Source: a bacterium
Lineage (GTDB): Bacteria > Oederibacteriota > CAKKQC01
NCBI GenBank assembly: GCA_919901855.1
Contig: CAKKQC010000023.1
Span: 1 to 64,000, forward strand
DNA length: 64,000 nt
Reading direction: 5' to 3'
Every line of letters starts with the position of its first letter. Positions within the stretch are counted from its first letter, which is position 1. Positions 14,730 through 56,022 of the stretch are shown here, one piece after another. A program made the position numbers and the translations under genes. Below the pieces are notes generated by a model. The model was not told where the DNA came from, made no database searches, and saw only the letters and a program-made list of their open reading frames with translations.

Positions 14730-14759
14730 ATTCTAACAGAGGGTCACGGAAGGACTCAA
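14730..14759 (-). promoter_or_regulatory. Candidate promoter TTGAGT-18-TAGAAT
   Basis: TTGAGT (14759-14754) and TAGAAT (14735-14730) on the minus strand, 18 bp apart, with 9 bases to the ATG at 14720. The -35 box overlaps the stop codon of the upstream propeller gene. Spacing to the ATG suggests a leaderless or nearly leaderless message. Confidence 0.5.
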
Positions 14760-17700
14760 AGGGCCTGCTCCGTGCCCTGGGGGGGCCGGGCGAACGCCCC
14801 TATCTCGCTCTCCAGCGACACCTCGTAGAGGCCGAAGGTGTCGGCCGGCGCGAGCGAGATGCGCCAGAAACGGTCCGGGGCCGCGTACACGATCCGCTGC
14901 CCGTCGACCGAGAAGGCGGGGGCCGAGACCCAGTGGGCGAACGGCACGAAGCCGCTCACGCCGGGGGTGTCCGGGAGCCCCGTGACGAGCATGAGGGTCC
15001 GCACCGGGAAGGGCGCCAACGCGGACATCCTCTCCTCGATCACCGCCATCCGGTTCTTGAAAGCGGCCCACCGGAGGGAGTGCAGGATCCCGCGCGACCG
15101 GAACACGATCGTCAGGTCCGACCCGTCGCCGTTCATGTAGAGGAGTTCGTCCGTGCCCCCGATGCGGTGCGCGACACAGACTATCGTCCCCCCGTCGACG
15201 GACAGTGCAACCTCGCGGACCATGTCGTAATCGGCCCAGCGGAACCCGGGCGCCGGGGGCTTCGGCGTCCAGAGCGGGCGGGTGATCCAGAGTTCGCGAA
15301 TTCTCGGCCGGTAACCGAAGAACCCCGCCACCTGCTGCGTGCGCCGCCGGAACCACTCGAGCCCGGCCCGGACCCCGTCGCGAATCCTCTCCAGGAACGA
15401 CAGCACGGCCTTGCCTTCCTCGGATGGGGAGTAGATGAGCGGAAGCTCGCGTTTCGCGGGGGCCGGAGTTATGAGCAGGGGCTTGCGGTCCGCGAGCGCG
15501 ATCGATACCAGGCGGGGGGTAGCTCCCCGGGCGACCGCGCAGACGAGGCGCTTCCCGTCTCCGGAAAGCGCCGGCCAGGCCAGCTTCCACGGAACCTCGA
15601 TCAGGCGGGTGGCGTCGCCCTTCTCCGCGGAAAGGCGCCACACCTGGGTGCCGCCCGGCACCGATGTCAGCACCAGCATGGAGCGCCCCGAGGGCTCCCA
15701 CCATGGCTGCACACCCGTGACGCGCATGCCCTGCAGCCGGCTGCGCCAGCGCCGCTTGCCGTCGATCCCGACGGACTCGACCACGGTATCCCGGCCCTCG
15801 GGCACCGCGATCGCGAGTCGCGCGGAGTCCGGCGAGAACCTCGGCGTCACGCCCGATGTCGGCAGCGGGTACGCGTTCGTCCGCCATTCGACCGTGGCAC
15901 CCTCCACGATCTCGAGCATCCCTCCGCCGCCGCTGGGCGAGCGTATGACGTAGGCCGCGTGGAGGCCGTCAGGCGCCCACTCGAGCCACCCCGGCGCGGC
16001 CGGGAATCCGCCCACCATGGGGTTGGTCGGGAACATGCCCATCGCCGCCTTCCCCCACGTCATGGCCGCGAACACGAGCGGCGGGAACAGGGCCAACTGC
16101 TGGAAAAGGAGGACGGCGATGCCCAGGACCAGACTGGCCCCGGTCCAGGTCCCCGCCCGGAGGCCCTTGAGGCTCCGGGCGAAGACGAGCCCTCCGACCG
16201 AACAGACGAGGAGGGACGGCACCAACGCGCCGTTCACCCACCAGAGCCAGGAGCCGGTGCCCGATAACACCAGTGCCACCCCCGTCCAGAAAGCGTCGCG
16301 GCGCAGGGCCCACTCGAACCGGATGATGCGGATCCAGTGCATGATGCACCAGAACGCCACGAGCGCGGCCACGGGGTAGAGCGCGAGTTCGTTCGCGGTC
16401 GTGGCCACCAGGGGCCGGTCCTTCCAGGACATCCATTGACCGGCGTAGAACGCGGCCATCGCCAGGGCGCCCGCGGAAGCATGCTGAAGCGGACGAATCC
16501 GCCAGGCCTGGTTGCCCGGCGACCGCTGCCACCGCGCGGCGCGCGCGAGGAACGCGAAGGCCAGAAATACCGCCGAGAGCCCCAGCCGGCCGGCGAGCGC
16601 CCGGTACCGGGGATCGAGCCAGTCGGAAGGGAAATCCGGCGCCGGGGGAAACCACCCCGCGGGGTCGAAGAAGGAACCCCAGTTGGTGAGCGGTTCGGCC
16701 AGCCCGGGCCGGAGACGCCAGACAACTCCTCCCTCGGCGAAGAAGAGTTCGCCGGCATTCCCGGCGACCGCGGTCACTGAATGGCCCGGGAGAACGGGAC
16801 GCACGCTCGTCCGGGCCCGGTCCAGCTCCAGCATGGTTCCCCGCGAGGTTACGGCTATCACCCGGCCCCCCGCCACCCCCACAAGGTCCACCGCGGGCTC
16901 CCCTTCCGGCCAGCCCTTCGGTATGAGCGGTTGCCAACCGGAAACCGCCACGAGGGCCAGACCCCGGTCGGTCAACCCGAGGGCCGCGTCATCGCCGCTG
17001 GGGATCAACCGGCGCACCGGGTGACCCCGGAGCTCCACGGGCTCCCGGCAGGGCGTCCACTTCGCCCCGTCGGTTCGCACGACCCCGCCGGCATAGAGCC
17101 CGACCCAGACGGCGCCGCTCACACCCGCGGGGGCGAGCGAGGTCACGTACGGGCTGGCCAGTTCGGCCTTGAACCCGCGCCAGACCTTCCCGTCAAAGAC
17201 GAACAACCCATCCTTCGCGGTGCCGGCCCAGATCCGCCCCCGGGCATCCTGCGCCAGACAGGTGATGTGCACGCGCCCCGGCGTCCCCTTTCCCGGCACT
17301 TTCCGCATCGCCTTTCCGTCGTGATAGGCCAGCCCGCGCCCCGTCCCGATCCAGGTCACTGTGCCCGTCGGCAAAATCGCGGTGACGGTGCGGGAAGGCA
17401 GGTACCGGCGAATGCGCTGCCAGGGCTTCATCCGTCGGCCTTCGTGCAGGAGGGTCAGCTCCGCCGGCCCCGTGATCCAGAGATTCCGGCCGTCCACCTC
17501 CAGGTCTCTTATCGTCCCGAAGGACTCGATCCGGGGAGGGATGAAGTTCGCCCGGGTCGGCCAGCCGCCAAGCATCGTCCGCCAGGTGCGCGGCAGGAGC
17601 CAGCAGGACCAGACGAGCAGCGCGACCTCGAGAACCATGAACAGGCGCCTTGGCGACAGGGGAGGTTCCTTGGGTGGAGGCAGGGGCTTCCGCGGCGCGG

Positions 17701-17797
17701 CTCCGCGAACGCCCGGCGGCGGCGGAGGCACTTCCTCGCCCTTCATGAGGATCTTCAGCTGCTTCTGCCTCGCCTCGAACCAGTCGGACAGGCTCAT
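14756..17797 (-). CDS. Propeller-membrane-propeller protein
   Basis: 1013 aa. A cytoplasmic Pro-rich start (PPPPPGVRG, KPLPPPKEPP) leads into a membrane helix (~52-68). A first beta-propeller region with two-component-regulator-like blades (e.g. IWAGTAKDGLFVFDGKVW) spans ~85-380. Five or six membrane helices lie between ~405 and 590, and a second WD40/TolB-like region runs ~600-1013 (SPDSARLAIAVPEGRD, LSGDGKRLVCAV, FSVDGQRIVYAAPD). No kinase or other enzyme domain is present, so it is not a standard sensor kinase. A scaffold or sensor role at the inner membrane is inference. It lies 52 bp after the propeller lipoprotein gene in the same direction. Confidence 0.55.
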   Translation of the reverse strand: MSLSDWFEARQKQLKILMKGEEVPPPPPGVRGAAPRKPLPPPKEPPLSPRRLFMVLEVALLVWSCWLLPRTWRTMLGGWPTRANFIPPRIESFGTIRDLEVDGRNLWITGPAELTLLHEGRRMKPWQRIRRYLPSRTVTAILPTGTVTWIGTGRGLAYHDGKAMRKVPGKGTPGRVHITCLAQDARGRIWAGTAKDGLFVFDGKVWRGFKAELASPYVTSLAPAGVSGAVWVGLYAGGVVRTDGAKWTPCREPVELRGHPVRRLIPSGDDAALGLTDRGLALVAVSGWQPLIPKGWPEGEPAVDLVGVAGGRVIAVTSRGTMLELDRARTSVRPVLPGHSVTAVAGNAGELFFAEGGVVWRLRPGLAEPLTNWGSFFDPAGWFPPAPDFPSDWLDPRYRALAGRLGLSAVFLAFAFLARAARWQRSPGNQAWRIRPLQHASAGALAMAAFYAGQWMSWKDRPLVATTANELALYPVAALVAFWCIMHWIRIIRFEWALRRDAFWTGVALVLSGTGSWLWWVNGALVPSLLVCSVGGLVFARSLKGLRAGTWTGASLVLGIAVLLFQQLALFPPLVFAAMTWGKAAMGMFPTNPMVGGFPAAPGWLEWAPDGLHAAYVIRSPSGGGGMLEIVEGATVEWRTNAYPLPTSGVTPRFSPDSARLAIAVPEGRDTVVESVGIDGKRRWRSRLQGMRVTGVQPWWEPSGRSMLVLTSVPGGTQVWRLSAEKGDATRLIEVPWKLAWPALSGDGKRLVCAVARGATPRLVSIALADRKPLLITPAPAKRELPLIYSPSEEGKAVLSFLERIRDGVRAGLEWFRRRTQQVAGFFGYRPRIRELWITRPLWTPKPPAPGFRWADYDMVREVALSVDGGTIVCVAHRIGGTDELLYMNGDGSDLTIVFRSRGILHSLRWAAFKNRMAVIEERMSALAPFPVRTLMLVTGLPDTPGVSGFVPFAHWVSAPAFSVDGQRIVYAAPDRFWRISLAPADTFGLYEVSLESEIGAFARPPQGTEQAL

Positions 17798-17849
17798 GCG
17801 CCTCTCCGCATCCCGATCCGCGTCCGCCGCCCTGCCCCGTGCACTCGCG

Positions 17850-20114
17850 TCAGAACATCGGCGGCGCTTCCGCCGGGGTGGAGGTCGGGACGGGCTTCGG
17901 AGCGGCCGGCGGTGGCGCCGGAGGAGTCGCCGGCGCCGGCGGGGACGACGCGGCCGGAGCCGCGGACGCAGGGAACTTCCAGCCTCCCGATGTAGCCGGC
18001 GCGGGCGGTTGCGCCGAAGCCGCAGGCTTCGGCGGTGTCGCCGCCGGCGGGGACGACGGGACCGGGGGCGCCGGCGCCACCGGCGGCGGCATCGGTGCAG
18101 GAGCCGCCGGGGCGGCGGCTTTCGGCGCGGGAGCAGAAGCCTTGTAGGGCTTCAGCGGGGCCCCCGGCTTCGCTTCCGGCGCGCGCTGGACCGGAGCCGG
18201 AGCGCGCACGGGCACACCAGCCCCGGGCTCCACCCGCAGATCCGCGAGCACACTCACGCCGGAATCGGTCCCGAACCACTTCCGGCCGCGCGAATCCACG
18301 GCCACGGAATAGCAGAAATTGCTCGCCAGCCCCTGGGTGGCCGTGAAGGGCTCCCAGCGCGCGCCCTCCCAGAAGCACGCGCCACCCCCCCAGGTCGTGA
18401 CCCAGATATTCCCTTCCCGGTCGAGCGCCAGCCCTGTCACGTAGTCCGTCCCGAGCCCGTCGCGCTGCGTGTATGTCGTCCAGTTGCCGCTCTCGAAGCG
18501 GGACAAGCCCCCGGCCTGCGTACCGAACCACACCCTTCCCTTGGTATCGCACAGGATCGCCCGCACCGTGTCGTCGGACAGACCGTCCGCCTTCCCATAG
18601 GAGATCCACCGCTCGCCGTCGAAGCGCGACACGCCGCGGTCGGTCCCGAACCACACCGCTCCCGTCGGATCGAGCGCCACGGCCAGCACCGTGTCGCTGA
18701 CGAGCCCGTCCGCCTTGCGGAAGGTCCGCCATTTGCCGTCGGTGTAAAGGTTGACGCCCGCGTTGGTCCCGGCCCAGATCCGGCCGCTTGGCTCGACGAG
18801 GAGGCAGTGGATATAGTTGTTCGCCCAGCCCTGCTCCGTCTTCCGGATAACCCACTCGCTCTCGCTCATTTCGATGGCGCCCTGCGACGTGCCCAACCAG
18901 ACGTGGCCCGCCGGATCCACCGCGACCGCGTGCACCGATTCGGCCGGCAGCCCCTCGGCGGCGGTGATGGATGTCCACTTGCCGGCGAGGAGCCGCAGGA
19001 CGCCCTGATCGGTGCCGCAATACACGAGGTCGCGGCCCGGCGCGCAGGCGACCGCGAGGATGCTGTTGTTGGGCAGGGTCGAGGCGATCGGCTGGAGATC
19101 GAACTTGGCCCCGTCGAACCGGACCAGGCCCATCCGGCACCCGACCCAGACATCGCCCGACGCCTCGGCCAGCAGGGAGTAGATCTCGTCGGACGGGAGG
19201 CCCGTGGATTTCCCGTAGTAGGCCCACCGGACACCGTCGAACATCGCCATGCCCTGGGAAGTCCCGATCCAGAGACGGCGGGTCGCATCGACCGCGATCG
19301 CGTTTACGGGCAGATCCTGGTAGCGATCCGGCAACGGGATGTTGGTCCACACCTGCCCGTCGAACCGCGACACGCCCTTCTCGCTTCCGGTCCACAGGTA
19401 CCCGTAGGGGTCCACGTAGAGGCAGCGAATCTCGGTCCCGAGCAGGCCATCGTCCGACGTCCTGATGGCCCACTGCGTCCCGTCGAACTCGTTGACCCCC
19501 TCCGTCGTACCGGCCCAGACCGACCGGCTCCCGGCCACCATCGCCAGCACGTCGTTGTTCCGCCAGCCCTTGCCGGTCTGGAACGATGTCCACGCCTTGC
19601 CCTCGAATTTCGCGATACCCTGCGCCGTACCGCACCAGATCGTGTTGGCCGCGTCGACGATCACGGCGCGGACGTAATTGCTCGGAAGGCCGTTAGCGGT
19701 CGTGAAGACCTGCCAACGGCGGCCGTCGAACGAGCAAACGCCCACGGGCGTGGCGACCCAGACCTGGCCGTTACGGTCCACGTCGATGTCGAGGATGGTG
19801 TTGTGCAGGAGACCGTCGCTCTGGGTGTAGACCACGTAATCGCCGGTCGTCACCGAGTACCGCACAAGGCCCCCGCCGCGCGTGCCCAGCCACAGGGAAT
19901 CCCCCTGCCGCGCCATGCTCAGGATCTGGGTGATGTTCCGAAAGGTCTTCCAACCTGCCCGCGGCAGACTGACGACTTCCGCCCGTGTCACCGCCGACCG
20001 GAATTCCCTCGGAGGTTCGCAGCCGGAACCGGCCAGCACCATCAGCCCGGCCGCGACCGCGCCCCGGACCATCCGCCACGCCGTCCCATTCACCACCATC
20101 CGTCGCATGTTCAT
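17850..20114 (-). CDS. Two-component-regulator-type propeller lipoprotein
   Basis: 754 aa. The N-terminus (basic, then GAVAAGLMVLAGSGC) looks like a lipoprotein signal with the acylated cysteine at C32, though the -3 residue is atypical. Residues ~55-620 consist of about 14 repeats of ~40 aa of the form VWxGTxxGVxxFDGxxWxxYxxxDGL, as in the periplasmic propellers of hybrid two-component sensors (Reg_prop). The last ~110 residues are Ala/Pro-rich and probably span the periplasm or cell wall. No kinase domain follows. Its start overlaps the stop of the BNR gene as ATGA, so the two are co-expressed. Confidence 0.65.
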   Translation of the reverse strand: MNMRRMVVNGTAWRMVRGAVAAGLMVLAGSGCEPPREFRSAVTRAEVVSLPRAGWKTFRNITQILSMARQGDSLWLGTRGGGLVRYSVTTGDYVVYTQSDGLLHNTILDIDVDRNGQVWVATPVGVCSFDGRRWQVFTTANGLPSNYVRAVIVDAANTIWCGTAQGIAKFEGKAWTSFQTGKGWRNNDVLAMVAGSRSVWAGTTEGVNEFDGTQWAIRTSDDGLLGTEIRCLYVDPYGYLWTGSEKGVSRFDGQVWTNIPLPDRYQDLPVNAIAVDATRRLWIGTSQGMAMFDGVRWAYYGKSTGLPSDEIYSLLAEASGDVWVGCRMGLVRFDGAKFDLQPIASTLPNNSILAVACAPGRDLVYCGTDQGVLRLLAGKWTSITAAEGLPAESVHAVAVDPAGHVWLGTSQGAIEMSESEWVIRKTEQGWANNYIHCLLVEPSGRIWAGTNAGVNLYTDGKWRTFRKADGLVSDTVLAVALDPTGAVWFGTDRGVSRFDGERWISYGKADGLSDDTVRAILCDTKGRVWFGTQAGGLSRFESGNWTTYTQRDGLGTDYVTGLALDREGNIWVTTWGGGACFWEGARWEPFTATQGLASNFCYSVAVDSRGRKWFGTDSGVSVLADLRVEPGAGVPVRAPAPVQRAPEAKPGAPLKPYKASAPAPKAAAPAAPAPMPPPVAPAPPVPSSPPAATPPKPAASAQPPAPATSGGWKFPASAAPAASSPPAPATPPAPPPAAPKPVPTSTPAEAPPMF

Positions 20115-21994
20115 CCCGCCCCTCCAGGTCTATATCTCAGAATGACACCCCGGTCGCCGACCGCCCAGCCAAGCTGGGGTGACACGAACCACAGACCGTA
20201 GAAATCCGTCGGCACCGGGGGTTTCTCCGCCGACCACGTATCTCCGCCGTCCCATGTGCGCAGGAGCACCCCCCGGTCCCCCACGACCCAGCCGCGCGCG
20301 CGATCCACGAAACAGACATCCCGGAGGGACACGGCTCCGCCGACCCGCATTTCCTTCCAGACGCGGCCGCCGTCCGTCGTGCGCAGGATCGTCCCGCCGT
20401 CACCCACGGCCCAACCCCGGTCCGCATCGAGGAAGAAGATGGCGCGGAGCGCTTCGCCGCCGCCGCCCGTCGAGACCGCGGTCCACCGGCGCCCGCCGGA
20501 ATCGGTCGCGTACAACCGGCCGTCCTCGGCGGCGATGAAACCGTGACTCGGCGAGTCGAACCACACCGAATACAGGGCGCGGTCGAACCCGGTCCGCAGG
20601 CGCTCCCAGGACTCCCCCTCGTTGCCGGTGTACAGCAGCACGCCCTCGGATCCGGCCGCCCAGCCCCGGCGCGTGTCGAAGAAGAAGATGTCGTTCAGCA
20701 CGATGGGGGGCTTCCGGAGCGCCTTGGGCTTCTCGAGTTCGGCGGCCGTCAGGGGAGGCTCCTGCCAGACCCGGCGCCACGCCAGCCCACCGTCGTCGGT
20801 CTTCACAATCACGCTCTCGCCGACCGCGAAGCAGAGCAGCCGCGACGCCGCGAACACGGCGTGGAAATCCTTGCGCATGCCGGCATCCTGCTGGCCCCAG
20901 TTCCGCCCCCCGTCCCGGGTGTTCCAGATCAGCCCGGCCCGGCCCACCACCCAGCCAGTCGAATCGTCCACGAAAGACACGGCCACGTACGAAGGCAGGT
21001 TTTCCAGGGAGTAGGTCGCCCAGGCATCGCCGCCGTCTATCGAGGACAGGAGGGCGTTCTCGCCGCCCACCGCCCACGCCACCTTCCCCGTCTGGGCGAT
21101 CCCGGTTAGATCCTCGCGCGAACCCGTCTCCCGGGGCGTCCAGGTTACGCCCGCATCCGGGGTATTCCACGCCTTCCCGCCGGCACCCACGACGGTGACG
21201 GCGTCACCCGAGGATCCGCAGACGCAGTAGAGCGAATCGATCGCCCCCGGAACCGGGATTACCTCCCATTTCTTCATGAGGTACCGCAGGACGAGTCCAT
21301 CGCGGCCCACCGCCCAGCCCGTTTCACCGAAAAACCAGACGCCGTATAGCCACTTCGCGGACGGTTGCCGCTCCGTCGTCCACGTCCCCCCCGCATCCCT
21401 CGAATGCAGGATGATCCCGCGTTCGCCCACAACCCAGGCTTCCTTGGGGCTCGGCATGGTGACGGCCATCAGCGACTCCATCACCCCCAGGTCCTTTCGC
21501 GACCACGAGCGTCCGGCATCCGACGAGACGAGCAGGACGCCGCGCAGCCCTACCGCGACCCCGACGTTCCGGCTGCCGAAACACACACCCCGGAGATCCT
21601 CGGTGACGGGGGGTTTGGCCGCTCTCCACGTCGCTCCCGCGTCGTCCGTCGAGGCGATGAACCCGCCCTCGCCCACGGCGACGCCCGTCGTCGCGTCTCC
21701 GAACGACACGCCGTAGAGCGTCCGGTCCGTGAAGGGCCGTGGACGGTTCCAGAGTTTCCCGTCGACGGAGGTCATGAAACCGCCGCGCTCCCCGACGCCC
21801 CAGAACGCGCCGGACAAGGAACTCACGGCCAGCAGACGGGTAGACTCCCGCTTCACCATGAGTCCCCAGGGATTCACCTCCGCCGGCGGAGCGCCGGACG
21901 GAGCGGAGGCCGCCGGGGACACCCCCGCCGCCATCAGCGCCGCCACGGCCACGATCAGGGGCCGGCGGAAACGGGCCACGCCGGCCGGACTCAC
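20111..21994 (-). CDS. Secreted Ycf48-like BNR-repeat protein
   Basis: 627 aa from a GTG start that overlaps the PorV-like gene stop (GTGA). A signal peptide (~1-30, LIVAVAALMAAGVSPAASA) is followed by about 12 repeats of the type GWAVGxxGxILRTxDGGxTW, which form the seven-bladed fold of Ycf48/HCF136 and related BNR proteins. In phototrophs Ycf48 helps assemble photosystem II; no photosynthesis genes are visible here, and such repeats are common in secreted proteins of many bacteria. Its job is unknown but probably periplasmic or surface-bound, linked to the PorV barrel encoded just before it. Confidence 0.65.
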   Translation of the reverse strand: MSPAGVARFRRPLIVAVAALMAAGVSPAASAPSGAPPAEVNPWGLMVKRESTRLLAVSSLSGAFWGVGERGGFMTSVDGKLWNRPRPFTDRTLYGVSFGDATTGVAVGEGGFIASTDDAGATWRAAKPPVTEDLRGVCFGSRNVGVAVGLRGVLLVSSDAGRSWSRKDLGVMESLMAVTMPSPKEAWVVGERGIILHSRDAGGTWTTERQPSAKWLYGVWFFGETGWAVGRDGLVLRYLMKKWEVIPVPGAIDSLYCVCGSSGDAVTVVGAGGKAWNTPDAGVTWTPRETGSREDLTGIAQTGKVAWAVGGENALLSSIDGGDAWATYSLENLPSYVAVSFVDDSTGWVVGRAGLIWNTRDGGRNWGQQDAGMRKDFHAVFAASRLLCFAVGESVIVKTDDGGLAWRRVWQEPPLTAAELEKPKALRKPPIVLNDIFFFDTRRGWAAGSEGVLLYTGNEGESWERLRTGFDRALYSVWFDSPSHGFIAAEDGRLYATDSGGRRWTAVSTGGGGEALRAIFFLDADRGWAVGDGGTILRTTDGGRVWKEMRVGGAVSLRDVCFVDRARGWVVGDRGVLLRTWDGGDTWSAEKPPVPTDFYGLWFVSPQLGWAVGDRGVILRYRPGGAG

Positions 21995-23085
21995 TCCGCG
22001 GTCTCGCGTGGCCTCGGCCGCAAGCTGATGCTGAACGAAACGCGAGACACGTTGGTCGAAAGGTCGGACCAGTAGGAGTACGAGTAGTCCAGGGAGTAGA
22101 CGAACGGATCGACCGAGAAGCGCAGGCCTGCACCGGCCGACGGCGAATCGATGTCACTGCCCACCCGCACCGTCCACCCGGCGCGCAAGGCGAGAATCCC
22201 CGCCAGCCACCACTCCGTCCCGATTCCGTAGTTGTACCGGTTCTGAACCGGATGCTTGAGCGACATCGAGAAGATCGAGCCGATGCCCCCGCTCGGGATC
22301 ACGAGCCGGTAGCCGGTCTCCACCGGCTGGGACGCGTCCGCGGCGAACCTGACCGATAGCCACTCGTCCTCGTAGGCCTTCCACGACACCCCCCCGCGCG
22401 CCCAGAACGGCGACGGGCTGTTCGCATCGCGGAACCTGAGGCGCGACCCCATGTTCTGCAACGCAACCCCGCCCGAGATCGCCGGCTCCTCGTTTGTGTA
22501 CTGGACGCCGAGATCGAGCAACGGAGCCGACGCGGCCGAGCGCGGCCGGCCGTTCTGCTCGACCCCCGTGCTGAGGAACTTGAGGCCGCCACCGAGACTC
22601 CAACGGTCGGAAACCCTCCAGGCGTAGTAGGGCCCCGCCGCGAAGTTCGTGAGGTCGACGCCCGGCTCGACATCCTCGGGCACGTTCAGTATGCGGGGCA
22701 CGTGGAAGTAGTTGAAGGACGCTCCCAGGATATGGTCCGCGGCGATGGGCGCCGCGACGCCGACACTGGAGAACGAAGTGTCGGCGAACCAGTCGGTGTA
22801 GGACAGGGCAATCTCGAAACCCCGGAGGTGAGCCAGACCGGCCGCGTTCCAGGACATCGCGGACACGTCGTCCGCGACGCCCGTAAACGCCTCACCCATG
22901 CCGGTCGCGCGCGCCCCCGCGGCGATCAGGAGGAAGCTCCCCGCCTGCTGACCGTTGGTCACCGCGCCTCCGGGACCCGCCGCCAGGGCCGCGAGCACGA
23001 GCCCGGCGGCCACGCCGGCCCCAGGGCGGGACCACCTGCGCGACGACCCCGAATCCCCCATTCCCCCTGATTTTACCGGGCTCAC
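21991..23085 (-). CDS. PorV/PorQ-family outer-membrane barrel protein
   Basis: 364 aa from a GTG start. After a signal region (~20-42, AGLVLAALAAGPGGAV) comes the family start AGSFLLIAAGARATGMGEAFTGVADDVSAMSWNAAGLA, which is diagnostic for PorV/PorQ (UPF0164) proteins. The rest alternates beta strands and turns as expected for a FadL-like barrel. In type IX secretion PorV receives cargo carrying a C-terminal sorting domain. The three genes just upstream encode proteins with such C-termini, which supports a similar role here. It is translationally coupled on both sides by 4-base overlaps. Confidence 0.75.
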   Translation of the reverse strand: MSPVKSGGMGDSGSSRRWSRPGAGVAAGLVLAALAAGPGGAVTNGQQAGSFLLIAAGARATGMGEAFTGVADDVSAMSWNAAGLAHLRGFEIALSYTDWFADTSFSSVGVAAPIAADHILGASFNYFHVPRILNVPEDVEPGVDLTNFAAGPYYAWRVSDRWSLGGGLKFLSTGVEQNGRPRSAASAPLLDLGVQYTNEEPAISGGVALQNMGSRLRFRDANSPSPFWARGGVSWKAYEDEWLSVRFAADASQPVETGYRLVIPSGGIGSIFSMSLKHPVQNRYNYGIGTEWWLAGILALRAGWTVRVGSDIDSPSAGAGLRFSVDPFVYSLDYSYSYWSDLSTNVSRVSFSISLRPRPRETAE

Positions 23086-25133
23086 CGGATCACCGCCAGT
23101 TTCTTGACCCGACGCCCCCCGGGCACCCTGGCCACCACGAAGTACACGCCTGGCGCAACTACGACCCCCGCCTCGTTACGGGCGTTCCAGGAGACCAGGC
23201 GGGCCTCCGCGGGCAGGTCCGCATCCAGCAGGACCTTCACCGACTGCCCGGCCGCGTCGTGCACCTCGACCCGCGCCGGGCCCGGCCGGTCCATGCGGAG
23301 CTGCATCAGGCATTCCTCCCCCAGGGCAGGCCGGATGCTGTTGCACGCGATATCGAGGATGTCGTGCAGAGGATCCCAGGTCACCTGCCACGCCCGCAGT
23401 ATCGGCCGCTTGGCGCAGTCGGCCGGATCGCTTTCCATGACGGCTCGCAGGGACAGGGAAGGGCACCGGTACGGGTCCAGGGCCTCGAGCGAAGCGCCCG
23501 AGGCCACATCGGCCAGCAGGATGGCGCCGTCCGGCCCCAGAACGTCCACCCGAATCGTCGCGGCGGGAGAGGGCTTCTCGATCACGTAGTCCACGGTCCG
23601 CCAGCGCTTCACCGATGTCGGCGCGATGCGCCTCGATTGGGCCCTCGCCGCACACACGTAGTAGTGCACCATCACCTGCTGCAGGAGGGGACGGAACCCC
23701 CCGAAGTACAGGTTCGGAGGCGAAGGCGCCAGATCCGGGTCAAGGCCGGACGCCGCAACGCGACCGAACAGGTCGGCCGACCACTGGAAATACCGCCCGG
23801 TCACGGGCAGCCCCGCCGTGTCGTGGATGGGGTTGCATGCGTTCGTCACCATGTTCATCCCGATGACCCCCGCGAGCGCCTCTCCCCCGTGCGTGACCGT
23901 CCAGATCGCCGGGAGCGGCCCCGGCCCCGAGTTGCTGACCGAGTACGAGAGCCGGACCGGCGTGAGCGGCACGCCGGGCGGGAGCGCGCTGACGAGGCTG
24001 TCGACGTAGATCGTGCTCATGTTCGCCGTCCAGCAGATGTTCACCCATCGCGTCGCCGTCGACAGCGTGTCGAAGACGCCGGAGGTGTACCGTCCCTCGT
24101 CGGCCGTGAGCCAGATGGGCCCCAGCATCGTGCAGTGACTGCACCCCCAGTCCGTCCCGGGCTCGCGCGGCGGCACCTGGCTATATACTTGGAGATCCCA
24201 CCGGTGCCCGCTCACGTTCTTCGCCGCGTCGAGGTGCACCGAGACCGTGGTCAACTGCTGGAAATCGATCCCTTCGGGACCCGGCGGAGACTTCCCCGTC
24301 ATCTCGGGGAGGGTGGCGGTAAAGAACTGGCCCTCGTAGAGCGTCACGGACGCGGCCGCCGATTTCGCGTTCTTATCGTAGATCTGGCACATTAGGTACG
24401 CCGTCCCGGTGTGCGCGACGTGCCCCGACCCGAGCAGCGCGCCCGCGAGGAACGTCGCAGTGTAGCCCCGGTTCGCGACCGGCAACCTCAGATTGAGGCC
24501 GCCGAGCAGGGGCTCGCCGAGGAAGGTGGCCATGCCGGGCGGGTTCGGCGTGCCATCGCTCGGGCTCTTCGCTTTGTGGCAGAAGATGTACTCGATCGCC
24601 CCCCCGAGCGACGGCAAGTACCCAATCTCGACCTGGGCGTTCCAGCCCGCCGCCGGAATCCAGTTCGTCCCCTCGTACGGCGCATTCCGGATGCAGAAGG
24701 GCACGTAGTCGCCGTTCTGGTAGTTGTTCGCCAGGCCCTTGCATGTCCCGCCTGTCCAACCCTCGCAGCTATACGGCACATCGAGCTGGGTGCCGGGGTT
24801 GTACCGGGCGGACCAGAGCGACAGGTACTCGGCCGTCGATCCGGGGTTCCCCACCGTGATCGTCGGGTCGATCGACGCCGTCGGAGCCGAGAACGGCTCG
24901 GAGAAGCCCGTCGTGCTGTACGGCCAGGTCAGAGTCTGGATGTTCGAGTCGATCGTGAATCCGCTCGGAGAAGCCAAGCCCCCCTGCTGGTTCGTGACGA
25001 GCCCGGAGAGGTCTGTGAAATCGTCCCGCCACGTGCCCTTCAGCACGTCCATGCGCACGTTCGCGGACGCCGTCGCGGCACCCCAGAAGAACACCGCCAG
25101 CACCACGGCCGCCGTCCGTCGTGCCGCCGTCAT
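23082..25133 (-). CDS. Secreted protein with FlgD-Ig C-terminus, paralogue 3
   Basis: 683 aa. A signal peptide (RTAAVVLAVFFWGAATASA) is followed by the shared opening GTWRDDFTDLSGL. A large beta-rich region has several cysteines, then a FlgD-like Ig module: VEVHDAAGQSVKVLL, GVYFVVARVPGGRR and a final KLAVIR. This ending resembles the type A C-terminal sorting domain of type IX secretion cargo. It shares layout, and phrases such as GPIWLTADEGRYTSGVFDTLS, with the two preceding genes, so the three arose by tandem duplication. It probably sits on the cell surface; no enzymatic motif is visible. Overlaps its neighbours by 4 bases on each side or nearly so. Confidence 0.6.
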   Translation of the reverse strand: MTAARRTAAVVLAVFFWGAATASANVRMDVLKGTWRDDFTDLSGLVTNQQGGLASPSGFTIDSNIQTLTWPYSTTGFSEPFSAPTASIDPTITVGNPGSTAEYLSLWSARYNPGTQLDVPYSCEGWTGGTCKGLANNYQNGDYVPFCIRNAPYEGTNWIPAAGWNAQVEIGYLPSLGGAIEYIFCHKAKSPSDGTPNPPGMATFLGEPLLGGLNLRLPVANRGYTATFLAGALLGSGHVAHTGTAYLMCQIYDKNAKSAAASVTLYEGQFFTATLPEMTGKSPPGPEGIDFQQLTTVSVHLDAAKNVSGHRWDLQVYSQVPPREPGTDWGCSHCTMLGPIWLTADEGRYTSGVFDTLSTATRWVNICWTANMSTIYVDSLVSALPPGVPLTPVRLSYSVSNSGPGPLPAIWTVTHGGEALAGVIGMNMVTNACNPIHDTAGLPVTGRYFQWSADLFGRVAASGLDPDLAPSPPNLYFGGFRPLLQQVMVHYYVCAARAQSRRIAPTSVKRWRTVDYVIEKPSPAATIRVDVLGPDGAILLADVASGASLEALDPYRCPSLSLRAVMESDPADCAKRPILRAWQVTWDPLHDILDIACNSIRPALGEECLMQLRMDRPGPARVEVHDAAGQSVKVLLDADLPAEARLVSWNARNEAGVVVAPGVYFVVARVPGGRRVKKLAVIR

Positions 25134-27004
25134 CGCCGCACCGCGACCTTGCGCGTCCCCGCCCCGCCGGCGGTGGTGGCCGTTATGAAGTACATGCCCG
25201 CGGCCACCGGCCGGCCCCCCGCGCCCCGGCCGTCCCAGGTGAACCGCACCGCCTGGCTACCGTACCACCCGTCCACGAGCCGCACGATCGTGTTTCCGGC
25301 GGCGTCGTGCACGCGCACCCGGACCCGTCCGTCCCGCTCCACGGCCACGAGCCCGGAGACCGACTCCCCCAGGCCGGGCGTGAACGCGTTCCGGTCCAGG
25401 ATCAGGCGTTCGGGCAGGGGAATCCAGGTCGCCTTCCAGCCCTTCAGCACCGGCTTCACCCCCGGATTGCCGGGATCCGCGGCCAGGCGTGCGCGCAGGA
25501 CGAACGACGGGTACCGGTAGGCGTCCAGCGAGCCGGCGAGCGGGAATGTCCTCGGAATCGCGGCGAACAGGAGGGTGCCATCCGCGGCAAGCAGGTCGAC
25601 GGCCACCGTGGATCCTCCGGACGTTTCCGCCTCCCAGCTCACACTGTTCCAGGCCTTGAGCGACGAGGGGCTCACGGGTTTCGAGACTACCTCGGCCGCC
25701 CGCGCGTAGTAGCGAGCGGTCAGCCGGCGGACCACGGGGCGCCATCCCGAGAAGTGCCGGGCTCCCGTCGTCGGAGCCAGGCCGCTCGCCGCCGCCGCCG
25801 CGGTCTCGCGCCCATAGAGCGTCACGCAGAAACCGAGGTAGCGTCCGCCGACACCCGCGGGTACCGGCGCGTTGCCGATACCCGGGACCGGCAGGGGCAC
25901 CGCCTGCGAGCAGGCCACCGGCGGGGCCGCACCGGCATCCCAGGCGATCGCGACCGGCGTCAGGGGGCTGCCGGGCGTCGGGCACGCGCAAGCGGGATCC
26001 ACGTCGTTCGAGCTCTGGTCCACGTCCCACTCGATCCGTGTCCACGCCGTCTGGTCGGAGAGGGTATCCAGCACCGGCGACCGGTAGACGCCTTCCTGGG
26101 CCGTCAGGTAGACGGGCCCGAGTACCGTGCAGTGCCGCTCCGAGCCCGCCTGCGAGACGACCCGCACGTCATAGGACGCGGTCGCCGCCGGAGGCGTGAC
26201 GGTCACCGTGACGTGGGTCAGCCCCGCAAACGCCGTGCTGAGCGGCAGCCCCAGGTCGCTCTCTGCCACCGTGACCGCCCCCGGGGCGGTCTGGTTCGCC
26301 GCACGATCCCAGAACCCGAAAGACAGGTACGGAGCGGCGCTGCCGTCGTGGTCGGCCGACGCCGAGAAGCTCGCGGCGTATTCGTGCCCCGCCGCGAGAT
26401 TCGCGGCCCCTCCGGAAAGGATCGGGGAACCGCTGAACGGCGAGATGCCGCCGTACACGGGAGTCTGGACGCCCGCGCAGGCCGGTGGGCTGCCCGCCGG
26501 CGCGGCCGGGGTATCCCAGCCTGCCGCGGCGGCGTTCCCGTTTCCGACGAGGGGAAATCCCGACAATCCGCGCGGATATGCGCGGCCGTTGACGACGCCG
26601 TGCACGGCAGGGTCGATCGGACACGCGGTCGTCCCGACCGGCGCGCAGGCGGAAGCTACCGCGAGCGCCTGCCCCGGCTCGTAGATCCTCTGCCAGAGGG
26701 TCACCGTCTCGCCGCTCGAGCCCGGGGCGAGGATCTCGATCGTCGGGTCCGGCTTCCCCGCGGAGAACCGCGCGTTCGCCGGGACCGTCCACACCTGTTC
26801 AGCCGGGTCCAGGCTCACGCCGCCCCCCGCCACGAGCTTGACGTGCCGGGATGCCGAGATCCCCTTGAGATCCTCGAAGCCGTCCATCCACGATCCCAGG
26901 CGCTGGTCAATGTGCAAAGCGCCGCCGGCAACACCGGCAACACCGGCCAGCCACAGCCCCGCCAGCGTCGTTGCGGAACGCCGGCGGAATCCCGGTATTC
27001 CCAC
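25130..27004 (-). CDS. Secreted protein with FlgD-Ig C-terminus, paralogue 2
   Basis: 624 aa from a GTG at 27004. A longer frame would need a TTG at 27028, whereas the GTG leads straight into the signal peptide (RRRSATTLAGLWLAGVAGVAGGA). The mature protein opens with GSWMDGFEDLKGISAS, equivalent to the opening of both paralogues. GPVYLTAQEGVYRSPVLDTLSDQTAW is common to the family. It ends with a FlgD-like Ig module (VRVHDAAGNTIVRLV, GMYFITATTAGG) and KVAVRR. Expected fate is export to the surface through the adjacent PorV-like barrel (inference). ATGA overlap with the next gene. Confidence 0.6.
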   Translation of the reverse strand: MGIPGFRRRSATTLAGLWLAGVAGVAGGALHIDQRLGSWMDGFEDLKGISASRHVKLVAGGGVSLDPAEQVWTVPANARFSAGKPDPTIEILAPGSSGETVTLWQRIYEPGQALAVASACAPVGTTACPIDPAVHGVVNGRAYPRGLSGFPLVGNGNAAAAGWDTPAAPAGSPPACAGVQTPVYGGISPFSGSPILSGGAANLAAGHEYAASFSASADHDGSAAPYLSFGFWDRAANQTAPGAVTVAESDLGLPLSTAFAGLTHVTVTVTPPAATASYDVRVVSQAGSERHCTVLGPVYLTAQEGVYRSPVLDTLSDQTAWTRIEWDVDQSSNDVDPACACPTPGSPLTPVAIAWDAGAAPPVACSQAVPLPVPGIGNAPVPAGVGGRYLGFCVTLYGRETAAAAASGLAPTTGARHFSGWRPVVRRLTARYYARAAEVVSKPVSPSSLKAWNSVSWEAETSGGSTVAVDLLAADGTLLFAAIPRTFPLAGSLDAYRYPSFVLRARLAADPGNPGVKPVLKGWKATWIPLPERLILDRNAFTPGLGESVSGLVAVERDGRVRVRVHDAAGNTIVRLVDGWYGSQAVRFTWDGRGAGGRPVAAGMYFITATTAGGAGTRKVAVRR

Positions 27005-27011
27005 GGCCGAC

Positions 27012-29243
27012 TCAGCGCGACACCGCAAGGCGGGCGGTCTCCCGTCCGGCCGGAGTCATGACGGTGACGAAGTAGAGCCCGGGCGCCGCCGCCACGCCCT
27101 GCGGGTTGGTGTTGCTGTCGCTGCATGATGTCGGAGCATGCCCGCCGGGATCGCTCGTTCCGTTCCACCTCTTCTGGCAGATGTCGCCTGCTCTCAGCTC
27201 GCCGTGAAAGAGCCGCTTGACCAATTGGCCCGCCGCGTCGTGGACGGTCACGTCCACGAGCCCGGTCCTGTTCGTGCAGAACCGGATCGCGACATCCTCG
27301 CCGTAGGACATCCTTACGGTGTTCCGGTTCAAGGCGAGACACCCCTGGAGCGGGGTATAGCTTACCTTGAACCAGTAGACGCGCGGGTCCACCGGCGCCC
27401 CATTCCGGTACATCATGAACCTGACGCGGATCGACGGATACCGGCCGGGGTCGATGCCGGCCAGGGAACCGCCGTCAGGAACGTTCGCGAGGATGATCCC
27501 GCCTCCCCCGTCGAGCACGTCGCACACGATCCGGCCCGGCGCGGGGTCGCCCTTCTGGTAGTTAAGCCGCCCCCAGCGCCAGAGGCGTCCCGGCGTGATG
27601 GGCTTCGACACGCACTGACCCGCGTCCGGCTGGTAGGCCACGCGGAACTGGCGGACGCGCGGAAGGAGCGACCCGTCGTAGGACATGCCCGAATGCAGGC
27701 AGGAACCCCACGTATCGTAAAGACCGCCGGGCGGAGGGGGGAAGGGAGCCGGAGGAGGCGGATTGCCCGGAGACAGGTCGATGGACCACGACGAGAAGTC
27801 CGCGCGGTACTGGAAGTAGCGCCCCATGGCCGGCGGCATCACGTATTCGTCCGCCTCGTTCACGGGCAGGATCGACGCGTCGAAGGTCGTGTTCGAGAAC
27901 CCGAACCCCGTCGTGGTGTTCGCGACGCGCCAGCCGAGGCTGACGGGAGTCCGCACGCCCTTGGCGTCCGGATTGAGGTCGACGTTCCATGCCACCGTCA
28001 TCCACTGGGTCTTGTCGCTCAGGGAGTCGAACGCGGGGGACAGGTAGGCCCCCGCCCCGGCCGTGATCGACAGCCCGTCGATGAACAGGGACGCCGCCGC
28101 GCGCGAGTTGGTGCACGGAATCGCCGGGGTTCCACATGAGGAGCCGGCATCGTTGCTGTTCGGCGGCGACGACGTCCCCGTCGTGCTCAGAAAGAATCCC
28201 CAGGTCCCGCCCGGCGGCTCATGGCACAGACCGATATTCATCCCGCCGAGGAGGTCTTCCCCGCAGTCCTTAGCATCCCACGGACTCCCCGCCCCCCTGG
28301 TGCTGCCCGGCACGAAGCTGAAGGAATACGGCGTGTACGGCGCCTGAGACGGCACGCCGGGAGTGTTCAGGTAAAGCGTCGCCGTACCGCCTTCCGTCGG
28401 CGGGTCCGACAGCCGAAGGTGCAGGGGACAGCCGCGACTTCGCTCCAGACACCCGATAATGGGATCCTTCTCGCTGCACCCGGCATCCGCGCCGCCGAAG
28501 TAGTCGGTCCGGATCGTGCCGTTCGTCGTGTAGGTATAGCTGATGACGAAACCCGCGAGCCGGTCGTTGTACGCTCCCGAAGTCGGCGGAGGGTTGGGGT
28601 GCATGCCGGGCGACCGGAGCCACCACGTGGCGTTGTACGGATGGCCCGGCAGCAGGAGGTCGCGATTCGCATCCTGATAGACGTACAGCGCCGCCATGAC
28701 GTAGTCCCCCGAGCCCTGGCACGTCTTGTCCGACTGGCACCGGTTGAACCCCGCGACGTCGGGCACCAGCAGGACCTGCCTCGACTTCGCTCCATGCAGC
28801 ACCTCCGCCCCCTGCGCGGAAATCGGGTAGAGCAGGCAGCGGGGGTTTGCCGTGCTGACCGGTGGCAGACAGTCGTTCTCCCACTCCATCGTGTCCGTCG
28901 CCGAGTAGAAGCGTTGGAACAGCTCGAGCGCCTCGCCGTACGGCGTCGCGGTCGCCACCTGGACGAATGTGGTCGCCGTCCCCGCCACCGAGAAGAGGGT
29001 GTCCGTTAGGTAGGTGGCGCTCGGTCCCGGCTGGGCCCAGGTCCACCCGGTCGTCACCCCGATCGAGGTGTTCACTGAATTCACGGACACCGCCTGGATG
29101 AGGTCGAGTCCGGCGGTGTCCTCGAACTCCTCGGTGTAGACCCCCTCACGCGTGTTCCAGGTCCCCGACCCGAAGGCCCCGGACGCCCACAGGGCCACCG
29201 CGACCGCGGCGAAGAGCCCCCCCGGGCGAGCGGCGTGATCCAC
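27012..29243 (-). CDS. Secreted protein with FlgD-Ig C-terminus, paralogue 1
   Basis: 743 aa from the GTG at 29243, chosen over a longer frame to 29339 because it gives a clean signal peptide (MDHAARPGGLFAAVAVALWASGAFG) and starts just after the sppA stop (29249). The mature protein opens with GTWNTREGVYTEEFEDTAGLD and is rich in cysteine and proline loops. It carries GAYLSPAFDSLSDKTQW, as in the paralogues. Its C-terminal FlgD-like Ig module (VTVHDAAGQLVKRLF, GLYFVTVMTPAGR) ends in RLAVSR. It is the first of three tandem paralogues. The start could be questioned, the family assignment less so. Confidence 0.6.
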   Translation of the reverse strand: MDHAARPGGLFAAVAVALWASGAFGSGTWNTREGVYTEEFEDTAGLDLIQAVSVNSVNTSIGVTTGWTWAQPGPSATYLTDTLFSVAGTATTFVQVATATPYGEALELFQRFYSATDTMEWENDCLPPVSTANPRCLLYPISAQGAEVLHGAKSRQVLLVPDVAGFNRCQSDKTCQGSGDYVMAALYVYQDANRDLLLPGHPYNATWWLRSPGMHPNPPPTSGAYNDRLAGFVISYTYTTNGTIRTDYFGGADAGCSEKDPIIGCLERSRGCPLHLRLSDPPTEGGTATLYLNTPGVPSQAPYTPYSFSFVPGSTRGAGSPWDAKDCGEDLLGGMNIGLCHEPPGGTWGFFLSTTGTSSPPNSNDAGSSCGTPAIPCTNSRAAASLFIDGLSITAGAGAYLSPAFDSLSDKTQWMTVAWNVDLNPDAKGVRTPVSLGWRVANTTTGFGFSNTTFDASILPVNEADEYVMPPAMGRYFQYRADFSSWSIDLSPGNPPPPAPFPPPPGGLYDTWGSCLHSGMSYDGSLLPRVRQFRVAYQPDAGQCVSKPITPGRLWRWGRLNYQKGDPAPGRIVCDVLDGGGGIILANVPDGGSLAGIDPGRYPSIRVRFMMYRNGAPVDPRVYWFKVSYTPLQGCLALNRNTVRMSYGEDVAIRFCTNRTGLVDVTVHDAAGQLVKRLFHGELRAGDICQKRWNGTSDPGGHAPTSCSDSNTNPQGVAAAPGLYFVTVMTPAGRETARLAVSR

Positions 29244-29248
29244 GGCGG

Positions 29249-30340
29249 TCAGCGCAGGAGGTACTTCAGGGCCACCGCGCGGCCGGTGACTCCCGAGGGT
29301 TCGGGGAGACCCAGCATCCCGCCGAGATAGTCCATCCACGACCGCTCGCGCCGCCGCCGGGGGGGCGACACCGTGCCGGGCCGCCCACGGAGGTGCGCGA
29401 GCGCGGCGGCCCGGTCCAACGCGTCCTCGTATCCGCCGAGCTCGTCCACGAGCCCGTCGTCGTAGGCCAGCCGGCCCGACAAGACCCGTCCGTCAGCCAG
29501 CGACCGGAGCCAGGCCCGCGCCTCGCCGTCACGCACGTTCCCGACTTTCTTCCCGGTCTCCCGGGCGACGGCCTCGCGCAACTGCCGGCTGCGTCCCTCC
29601 CACACGGCATCGAGGAACTGCTCGTACACGTCCTCGACGGTTTCCTGCATGATCTCGCGCTCCTCGGGCGTCATTTTGCGGGCGAAGTTGCCGCTGTCCT
29701 TGTACCGGCCGCTCTTGATGACGACGTATTCGATGCCGACCTTCTTGAGGAGCTCCGCCGCGACCGGAAACTCGAGGATCACCCCGATCGATCCGGTCAA
29801 CGTCCCGGGATTGCTGTAGATGGCGTCCGCCGGGCACGCGATGTAGTACCCGCCGGACGCCGCCACGCCCGCGAAGGACGCGACGATGGGCCGCCGCACC
29901 TTCCCCTTGTCCCTGAACTTCACAAGTTCGTCGACGATCTCCTGAACCGCCCCGACATCGCCGCCGGGACTGTCGATCCGGAGGACCATGGCGCGGACCA
30001 GCGGATGCTTGTCGAGCGCGTGGATCTGGCTGATGATCCACCGGGGGTCCTCGATCGGCCCGTCGACCTCGAGCACGCCGATTTTGCCGGGCACCCAGCC
30101 ACCCCCCCAGTCGAACTTGAACCAGGGTTTCTTGGGCCCCGCCTGCTTGGCGGGCGACTTCGGGGCGGCGGGCGTGGACGGCTTAGCGGGAGATGCCGGC
30201 TTGGCCGGCGACGCCGGCTTGGACGGCGCAGGGTCAAGGTTCGCGGGCGCGGAAAAGCCTGCAGACGCAAGGCACCATGCCGCGATCGCGATCGCGGCAC
30301 CGACCCGGATTCTTCCCTGCTTGGCGCTCCCGACCCGCAT
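29249..30340 (-). CDS. sppA: Signal peptide peptidase SppA-type serine protease (S49)
   Basis: 363 aa. A signal/anchor helix (~12-31) and an unusual Ala/Pro/Ser/Lys repeat stretch (~38-70, repeats of ASPAKP) precede the protease domain (~82-310). Family motifs: RIDSPGGDVGAV (121-132), the nucleophile S162 in VAASGGYYIACPAD, and the general base K214 in GRYKDSGNFA. SppA cuts leftover signal peptides in the inner membrane; some S49 members process other membrane proteins. As first gene of the surface-protein operon it may help clear or mature these exported products. TATATT lies 9 bp before the ATG. Confidence 0.88.
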   Translation of the reverse strand: MRVGSAKQGRIRVGAAIAIAAWCLASAGFSAPANLDPAPSKPASPAKPASPAKPSTPAAPKSPAKQAGPKKPWFKFDWGGGWVPGKIGVLEVDGPIEDPRWIISQIHALDKHPLVRAMVLRIDSPGGDVGAVQEIVDELVKFRDKGKVRRPIVASFAGVAASGGYYIACPADAIYSNPGTLTGSIGVILEFPVAAELLKKVGIEYVVIKSGRYKDSGNFARKMTPEEREIMQETVEDVYEQFLDAVWEGRSRQLREAVARETGKKVGNVRDGEARAWLRSLADGRVLSGRLAYDDGLVDELGGYEDALDRAAALAHLRGRPGTVSPPRRRRERSWMDYLGGMLGLPEPSGVTGRAVALKYLLR

Positions 30341-55456: not shown

Positions 55457-56022
55457 GCGGATCGCCCGCCGTCGAGCGGAATCACGCACAGCGATCGGTA
55501 CTCGGCCCCCTCCGGAGAAAGGAGGCTCTGGTGCAAAATCACGCGATTGATAAGGCATCTCCCCCCACCAGTGTCCCGCGATTCCCCTGCCAGTTCAACG
55601 TGGCCGAGATCGCAGGGCGGGCGGAACCGGGCCAGCGTCAGATGCGCCACGAAAGGCTTGTCATCAGCCCTCTCCAGACCCAGGGCGGCGGTCAGGGCCC
55701 GGACCCGCCGGACCAGGGCGGACAGGCCCCCCCCCGCCGACTCCAGCCCGATCCACAGCACCCGGGCCCGGCCGAACCCCGGAAACGCCCCGACGCGCCC
55801 GAGGCGCGCCTGGACCGGCGGTTCCCCCCGCAGGGACTCCAGCGAGTCCCGGAGACGGGCCACGTCCGCGTCCCCGATCTCCCCCAGGAAATCGAGCGTG
55901 AGATGGATCGCCTCCGGACGCGGCCACCGTCCCTCCGGAATCCGGGCCCGCAGCCGCTCGCTCGCGCGCGCCACTTCCGCGCGCGCCCCGGCCCCGATAT
56001 CCGCCGCCACGAAACACCGCAC
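55453..56022 (-). CDS. thpR: RNA 2',3'-cyclic phosphodiesterase ThpR (LigT family)
   Basis: 189 aa from the GTG at 56022, giving VRCFVAADIG, the common family N-terminus. Both catalytic H-x-T-x motifs are present: HLTLDFLGEIG (~43) and HLTLARFRP (~130). These enzymes open 2',3'-cyclic phosphates on RNA ends and show weak tRNA-splicing-type ligase activity in vitro. It begins 2 bp after the cinA stop, a frequent pairing in bacteria, and overlaps the barrel-OmpA gene by 4 bases. Confidence 0.88.
   Translation of the reverse strand: MRCFVAADIGAGARAEVARASERLRARIPEGRWPRPEAIHLTLDFLGEIGDADVARLRDSLESLRGEPPVQARLGRVGAFPGFGRARVLWIGLESAGGGLSALVRRVRALTAALGLERADDKPFVAHLTLARFRPPCDLGHVELAGESRDTGGGRCLINRVILHQSLLSPEGAEYRSLCVIPLDGGRSA

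What the first reader, a model, noticed from the sequence alone, without database searches (positions are those of the whole stretch)
14756..30340. Eight-gene surface-protein operon: SppA, three FlgD-Ig cargos, PorV-like barrel, three propeller proteins
All genes run the same way and most share 4-base stop/start overlaps, so they are likely co-produced. Cargo-like proteins with sorting-type C-termini are encoded right before a PorV-like barrel, then a BNR protein and two propeller proteins. No other type IX secretion gene is in the window. It may be a self-contained export and display module or the cargo part of a larger system.
Basis: partly seen in the sequence, partly recalled or inferred. 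Interest (0 to 1): 0.65.

Follow-up and report, generated by a model that had tools for sequence, protein, structure and literature searches.

The report
Secreted-protein cassette with its own carrier
This operon makes three related secreted proteins together with a dedicated outer-membrane carrier (a PorV relative); the same secreted-protein-plus-carrier pair recurs about 49 times in this uncultured bacterium, which suggests a version of the Bacteroidota type IX secretion system that uses many specialised carriers and has no detectable PorU sortase.

Summary
The eight co-directional genes are real. The three cargo proteins are full-length paralogues ending in a FlgD-Ig domain, and the barrel belongs to the PorV/PorQ family. 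Order g2-g8, plus queA-tgt, is conserved in the only same-family genome, though broken across three contigs there. The operon is not self-contained. A SprA translocon, above its curated cut-off, lies on the same contig about 4 kb past the window and is itself followed by a cargo gene and a PorV-family gene. Across the genome, 49 of 58 PorV-family genes follow directly after a gene ending in such a C-terminal domain (about 0.2 adjacencies expected by chance). Carrier and cargo-domain trees correlate, and SprA is followed by a cargo gene in all five other genomes examined. No PorU-type C25 sortase was found. Best reading: a cargo-plus-dedicated-carrier cassette of a divergent type IX system, organised like the Bacteroidota type B/SprF pairs but using PorV-family barrels and Ig-type domains. 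The motor (PorKLMN) could not be tested. SppA and g8 are inner-membrane or envelope proteins, not surface proteins.

The parts
29249..30340 (-). g1: SppA-type signal-peptide peptidase (363 aa), one N-terminal membrane segment; first gene of the operon, divergent from an ABC ATPase at 30405
   Evidence: TIGR00706 198.7 bits over cut-off 155; Peptidase_S49; TM-like 13-31
27012..29243 (-). g2: cargo paralogue 1 (ORF opens at 29339; likely start GTG 29243), C-terminal FlgD-Ig domain
   Evidence: FlgD_ig 23 bits, sub-cut-off; paralogous to g3 and g4; orthologue on G001 contig C77, 42% identity
25130..27028 (-). g3: cargo paralogue 2 (632 aa), signal-peptide-like N-terminus, C-terminal FlgD-Ig CTD
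   Evidence: FlgD_ig 30.7 bits over cut-off 27; orthologue on G001 C77, 51%
23082..25133 (-). g4: cargo paralogue 3 (683 aa); CTD 607-683 predicted as an Ig-like sandwich
   Evidence: 32% identical to g3 over its length; AF2 model whose CTD aligns to the PorU CTD 6za2, Z 10.2, rmsd 2.4 over 91 residues; orthologue on G001 C109, 58%
21991..23085 (-). g5: PorV/PorQ-family 14-stranded outer-membrane barrel (364 aa), proposed carrier of g2-g4
   Evidence: NF033709 166.8 bits over cut-off 90; AF2 pLDDT 84; top Foldseek hits PorV 8gl6_F E 7e-16 and 6h3i_F; PDB sequence hit 6h3i_F PorV E 4e-7; orthologue in G001, 67%
20111..21994 (-). g6: Ycf48/BNR beta-propeller with signal peptide (627 aa)
   Evidence: PSII_BNR 5.6e-53, 8 stretches; orthologue in G001, 66%, directly after PorV
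17850..20114 (-). g7: Reg_prop beta-propeller, possible lipoprotein (LAGSGC), no CTD; PorZ-like only in its propeller repeats
   Evidence: Reg_prop 2.2e-48; PorZ model 97 bits, cut-off 260; orthologue in G001 C421, 73%
14756..17797 (-). g8: inner-membrane protein (1013 aa) with an N-terminal Reg_prop region, five hydrophobic segments and a TolB-like C-terminal propeller
   Evidence: Reg_prop and TolB matches; TM-like segments; full-length homologue only in the same family
53387..55558 (-). Separate PorV-family barrel fused to a FlgD-Ig domain and an OmpA peptidoglycan-binding domain (723 aa); not part of the operon but of the same system
   Evidence: NF033709 96.5 bits over cut-off 90, FlgD_ig 27.8 over 27, OmpA 37.9 over 27.2

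Best explanation
The operon is a cargo-plus-carrier cassette of a divergent type IX secretion system in a Coatesbacteria-related phylum. Proposed mechanism: g2-g4 are exported by Sec (SppA may clear the released signal peptides), their FlgD-Ig C-terminal domains (CTDs) are recognised in the pore of the genome's single detected SprA translocon by loops of the PorV-family barrel g5, and g5 then carries each cargo out sideways into the outer membrane and keeps it on the surface. Because no PorU sortase is detectable, the cargo is probably not cut and re-linked but stays bound to its carrier, as in the Bacteroidota type B/SprF pairs. g6-g8 are envelope propeller proteins co-produced with the cassette, perhaps for assembly or quality control. 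Shown: gene order and its conservation, family memberships, genome-wide cargo-to-PorV pairing, tree correlation, SprA and its own cargo neighbour, absence of C25 peptidase hits. Inferred: physical CTD-barrel binding, passage through SprA, retention on the carrier, and the roles of SppA and g6-g8.
For: SprA 263.5 bits over cut-off 200, followed directly by a CTD cargo and a PorV-family gene. SprA is followed by a CTD cargo gene in five other genomes too, and then by a PorV-family gene in G001. 49 of 58 PorV-family genes directly follow a gene ending in one of two CTD classes, against 11 of 2187 other ORFs with such an end; with curated Pfam/NCBIfam models alone, 23 adjacencies against 0.2 expected. 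PorV and CTD trees correlate within class 1 (r 0.52, p 0.0002) and class 2 (r 0.63, p 0.004), the nearest PorV has the same CTD class in 48 of 49, and the correlation holds when passengers are not homologous (r 0.63, p 0.0003). g5 folds like PorV of the solved substrate-bound translocon. In-frame PorV-FlgD_ig fusions occur in this and other genomes. No C25 peptidase in G000 or G001, although canonical genomes in the same search score strongly. Bacteroidota precedent for cognate cargo/carrier gene pairs: PMC12618676, PMC9143113; the PorV/SprA pulling mechanism: PMC10994853.
Against: The type A CTD model TIGR04183 and the PorV, PorQ and PorZ equivalog models are all below cut-off. No motor component was found; the GldM and GldL searches also failed in the genomes with canonical SprA and PorU, so they decide nothing. 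Tree correlation can arise from co-duplication of linked genes without binding specificity. Orphan cargo homologues without a PorV neighbour exist, so carriers may be shared. No expression or localisation data exist.
Confidence: 0.72

Rival explanations
1. g5 and the other PorV-family barrels are ordinary FadL-like transporters of hydrophobic solutes, next to secreted-protein genes because both serve one nutrient-use function.
For: The PorV family is related to FadL/TodX (Toluene_X 1.2e-5; FadL structures at E about 1e-9).
Against: The best structural and sequence match is PorV itself, by six orders of magnitude over FadL in Foldseek E-value. The neighbour always ends in the same kind of CTD while passengers differ, and the CTD tree follows the barrel tree even when passengers are unrelated.
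Confidence: 0.12
2. An ordinary Bacteroidota-style type IX system with one PorV for all cargos and a PorU sortase that was missed because the genome is incomplete or PorU has diverged; the pairs reflect only co-duplication.
For: The genome is 93% complete in 91 contigs, and SprA itself is strongly diverged.
Against: C25 gives no hit in G000 or G001 and hits only 4 of the 45 phylum members searched, while four canonical genomes give 1 to 10 strong hits. NF033707 is below cut-off throughout the phylum. 49 pairs with matching trees are not needed if one carrier serves all.
Confidence: 0.12
3. The operon is a self-contained export and display module.
For: The genes are contiguous and co-oriented, and their order is conserved.
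Against: It contains no translocon or motor; SprA sits elsewhere on the contig with its own cargo and PorV; about 48 other loci share the cargo/barrel arrangement.
Confidence: 0.04

Closest known systems
Type IX secretion system of Bacteroidota: SprA/PorV translocon with type A CTD cargo (PDB 6h3i, 8gl6; PMC10994853)
   Same: SprA over its curated cut-off; a PorV-family barrel with the PorV fold; cargos with an Ig-like CTD that aligns to the PorU CTD
   Different: About 58 PorV-family barrels, each usually with its own cargo gene, instead of one PorV for all type A cargo; no PorU sortase found; CTDs fall below the TIGR04183 cut-off; motor not demonstrated
Type B CTD cargo with cognate PorP/SprF carriers in Flavobacterium johnsoniae (PMC12618676, PMC9143113)
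   Same: Carrier gene directly downstream of its cargo gene; one cargo-one carrier logic; carriers thought to keep cargo on the surface without PorU; linkage to OmpA/PorE peptidoglycan-binding proteins
   Different: The carrier is PorV/PorQ family rather than PorP/SprF; CTDs are FlgD-Ig or a second class rather than type B; the barrel is fused in one chain to OmpA, TPR or CsgG-like domains in several loci
PorZ of Porphyromonas gingivalis
   Same: g7 has Reg_prop propeller repeats like PorZ
   Different: g7 has no CTD, carries a lipobox-like signal and scores 97 bits against a PorZ cut-off of 260

Membership tests
Type IX secretion system | SprA/Sov outer-membrane translocon | tested here: met
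   TIGR04189 263.5 bits, cut-off 200, at contig C23:68244-74099, 4.2 kb past the window
Type IX secretion system | PorV carrier (equivalog NF033710) | tested here: not met
   g5 69.3 bits, cut-off 250; it meets only the broader PorV/PorQ family NF033709
Type IX secretion system | Cargo with type A CTD (TIGR04183) | tested here: not met
   g2-g4 13.0-15.7 bits, cut-off 23; FlgD_ig matched instead, over cut-off in g3
Type IX secretion system | PorU C25 sortase | tested here: not met
   No PF01364 hit in G000 or G001; NF033707 below cut-off in the phylum
Type IX secretion system | PorL/PorM motor and PorK/PorN ring | tested here: inconclusive
   GldM and GldL models silent here but also in the canonical genomes; PorK and PorN not searched
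PorV/PorQ family (NF033709) | Score over curated cut-off and a FadL-like 14-strand barrel | tested here: met
   166.8 bits, cut-off 90; AF2 barrel, best match PorV
Type B CTD / SprF pair | Carrier encoded directly downstream of its cargo | tested here: met
   4-base overlap g4/g5; 49 of 58 genome-wide
Type B CTD / SprF pair | Type B CTD (TIGR04131) and PorP/SprF-family barrel | tested here: not met
   Neither model appears in the NCBIfam scan of the eight proteins at E up to 0.1; the barrel is assigned to NF033709 and the CTDs to FlgD_ig
PorZ | NF052228 over cut-off | tested here: not met
   g7 97.3 bits, cut-off 260
SppA | TIGR00706 over cut-off | tested here: met
   g1 198.7 bits, cut-off 155

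The most novel reading that the evidence does not exclude
In this phylum the type IX system works without a sortase and with dozens of dedicated PorV-family carriers. Each carrier extracts its own CTD cargo from one SprA and then stays as its permanent surface anchor, tethered in some cases to the cell wall or periplasmic partners by C-terminal OmpA, TPR or CsgG/LpoB-like tails. Bacteroidota type A (one PorV plus PorU) would then be one specialised outcome of an older one-cargo-one-carrier design.
Probability: 0.4. Interest if true: 0.75.

Novelty: new variant of a known kind. Interest (0 to 1): 0.6.

Why it matters
Type IX secretion has been described as restricted to Bacteroidota (PMC4793230) or their superphylum (PMC11205867), with one PorV for all type A cargo and cognate SprF carriers only for type B (PMC12618676). 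Here a PorV-family barrel has taken the cognate-carrier role on a genome-wide scale, without a detectable sortase, in a distant uncultured phylum. About 49 natural cargo/carrier pairs from one genome are a ready data set for finding the residues that decide which CTD a carrier accepts, a question the held literature leaves open. They also bear on how the system arose.

Tried and rejected
GldM and GldL searches were silent even in genomes with SprA and PorU over cut-off, so they are not used as evidence of absence. g7 as PorZ: rejected, below cut-off and no CTD. Adjacency by chance: rejected. Tree correlation explained only by copying whole cargo genes: weakened, since it persists among pairs with non-homologous passengers, though co-duplication is not excluded. 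Operon specific to PorV loci in general: rejected; g6-g8 homologues do not accompany the other PorV pairs, and full-length g8 homologues exist only in the same family. Promoter and terminator scans gave nothing above shuffled sequence. The passenger of g4 gave only weak jelly-roll-like matches in a low-confidence model, so no binding function is claimed. Literature searches found no report of multiplied PorV carriers paired with cargo; the held library is open-access only.

Full report
What is there. Eight minus-strand genes run from 30340 to 14756: SppA, three cargo genes, a PorV/PorQ-family barrel, a Ycf48/BNR propeller, a Reg_prop propeller, and a membrane protein with two propeller-like regions. 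Four junctions overlap by exactly four bases, and the rest are tight if g2 starts at 29243. The three cargos are paralogues: g3 and g4 align over their whole length (32% identity), and g2 joins them over the C-terminal half and more weakly at the N-terminus. All end in a FlgD-Ig domain. First, SppA and g8 have membrane anatomy, so 'surface proteins' fits at most six of the eight. Second, the window holds another PorV-family gene, a barrel fused to FlgD_ig and OmpA (53387-55558). Third, SprA lies just beyond the window.

Conservation. The window is part of an 85,875-base contig of a 4.68 Mb assembly. The only same-family genome (G001; GenBank title Candidatus Coatesbacteria) carries g2-g3-start of g4 on one contig, g4-g5-g6 on a second, and g7-g8-queA-tgt on a third, at 42-73% identity. 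The breaks fall at contig ends, so the order g2-g8 and its downstream neighbours is conserved as far as it can be read; SppA's place in that genome could not be read. Full-length g8 homologues occur only in this family, and elsewhere in the phylum the listed matches to the cargos are confined to the CTD region.

The larger system. A SprA homologue over the curated cut-off (263.5 bits against 200) lies at contig position 68244-74099, and the next two genes are a FlgD-Ig cargo and a PorV-family barrel. In five other genomes examined, the gene after SprA also ends in the same CTD, and in G001 a PorV-family gene follows. The genome holds 58 PorV-family genes at E up to 1e-3, 17 of them over the curated cut-off, and 58 FlgD_ig stretches. 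With these curated models alone, 23 PorV genes have a FlgD_ig end directly upstream against 0.2 expected. A profile trained on those 23 found 13 more among the 35 remaining loci, and a second CTD class, checked by leaving one out (13 of 14 members at E 1e-18 or better, one at 0.0015), brings the total to 49 of 58; 11 of 2187 other ORFs have such an end, and those include g2 and g3. Thirteen of the 17 barrels over the cut-off are paired. The second class was recognised by eye before it was modelled, so 36 is the stricter count. The same adjacency appears in three other phylum members (9 of 29, 9 of 23 and 3 of 7 with Pfam FlgD_ig alone), and at 40 of 70 loci with a readable upstream ORF in phylum relatives and other phyla such as WOR-3, Marinimicrobia and Elusimicrobia.

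Pairing is more than position. Barrel and CTD trees of the 49 pairs correlate within class 1 (r 0.52, p 0.0002) and class 2 (r 0.63, p 0.004), and the nearest barrel has the same CTD class in 48 of 49 cases (shuffles: mean 28.5, maximum 40). The correlation is unchanged among pairs whose passengers are not homologous (r 0.63, p 0.0003). This fits selection for matching barrel and CTD, but co-duplication of neighbours would also produce part of it.

Structure. g5 is predicted with confidence (pLDDT 84) as a 14-strand barrel with N-terminal hatch helices; its best matches are PorV in the RemA-CTD-bound and substrate-free translocons (E 7e-16 and 4e-14), followed at some distance by the FadL family. 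The g4 CTD is predicted as an Ig-like sandwich that aligns to the PorU CTD (Z 10.2, rmsd 2.4 over 91 residues), among many other Ig folds of equal score, so this is consistent but not specific. The passenger model is poor.

What is missing. No C25 peptidase, the catalytic domain of PorU, was found in this genome or in G001, while canonical genomes in the same search gave strong hits. The motor could not be judged, because the GldM and GldL models were silent in the canonical genomes as well.

How it most likely works. In F. johnsoniae the CTD binds PorV loops inside the SprA pore and PorV pulls the cargo out sideways (PMC10994853). Type B cargos instead use cognate SprF-like carriers encoded directly downstream, which are thought to stay as anchors, in some cases with the peptidoglycan-binding PorE (PMC12618676, PMC9143113). 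The operon has the second layout with PorV-family parts. I infer that g5 collects g2-g4 from SprA and holds them on the surface. Three cargos for one carrier agrees with other multi-cargo clusters (contigs C6, C7, C27). That 36 of 58 barrels carry tails beyond the barrel, including OmpA, TPR and CsgG/LpoB-like domains, fits carriers that stay and are tethered. The parts played by SppA and g6-g8 are guesses.

Membership and novelty. It shares SprA and a PorV-family carrier with the type IX system but fails the type A CTD, PorV-equivalog and PorU tests, and the motor is undecided. I therefore describe it as working like a type IX cargo/carrier pair and as a new variant, not as a canonical member. 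The existence of PorV-family and SprA annotations outside Bacteroidota is implied by the curated models used here; what I did not find reported is the genome-wide cargo/carrier pairing with no sortase.

Noticed in passing
window 53387-55558 (-); also contig C32 ORF at 41735 in L159: PorV-family barrel fused to FlgD_ig and OmpA in the window, and another barrel ending in an OmpA-like motif on C32: possible single-chain versions of the PorP-PorE anchor. In-frame PorV-FlgD_ig fusions also occur in G006 and G016.
   Followed up: partly
L184:5914-7293, L186:5506-6885, L205:4686-6035 and others: A subclass of PorV-family barrels carries a periplasmic CsgG/LpoB-like tail (Pfam over cut-off in three), others TPR or fn3-like tails.
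   Followed up: partly
L119:5187-14099 (contig C23:65187-74099); L232-L236: SprA is directly followed by a gene ending in a FlgD-Ig CTD in all six genomes looked at, a linkage that could be used to find divergent SprA systems.
   Followed up: partly
L223:5258-7393 and L224:4497-6626: Orphan full-length homologues of the operon cargos without a PorV neighbour, one 58% identical to g2 and one upstream of a gene that looks like a glycoside hydrolase.
   Followed up: no
G006:C1:223316 and G000:C40:188481: FlgD_ig matches lie in open frames of 24,245 and 10,753 codons, i.e. possible giant cargo proteins.
   Followed up: no
window 8650-12213 (-): Large protein with weak beta-galactosidase (GH42) matches downstream of the operon and queA-tgt.
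   Followed up: no
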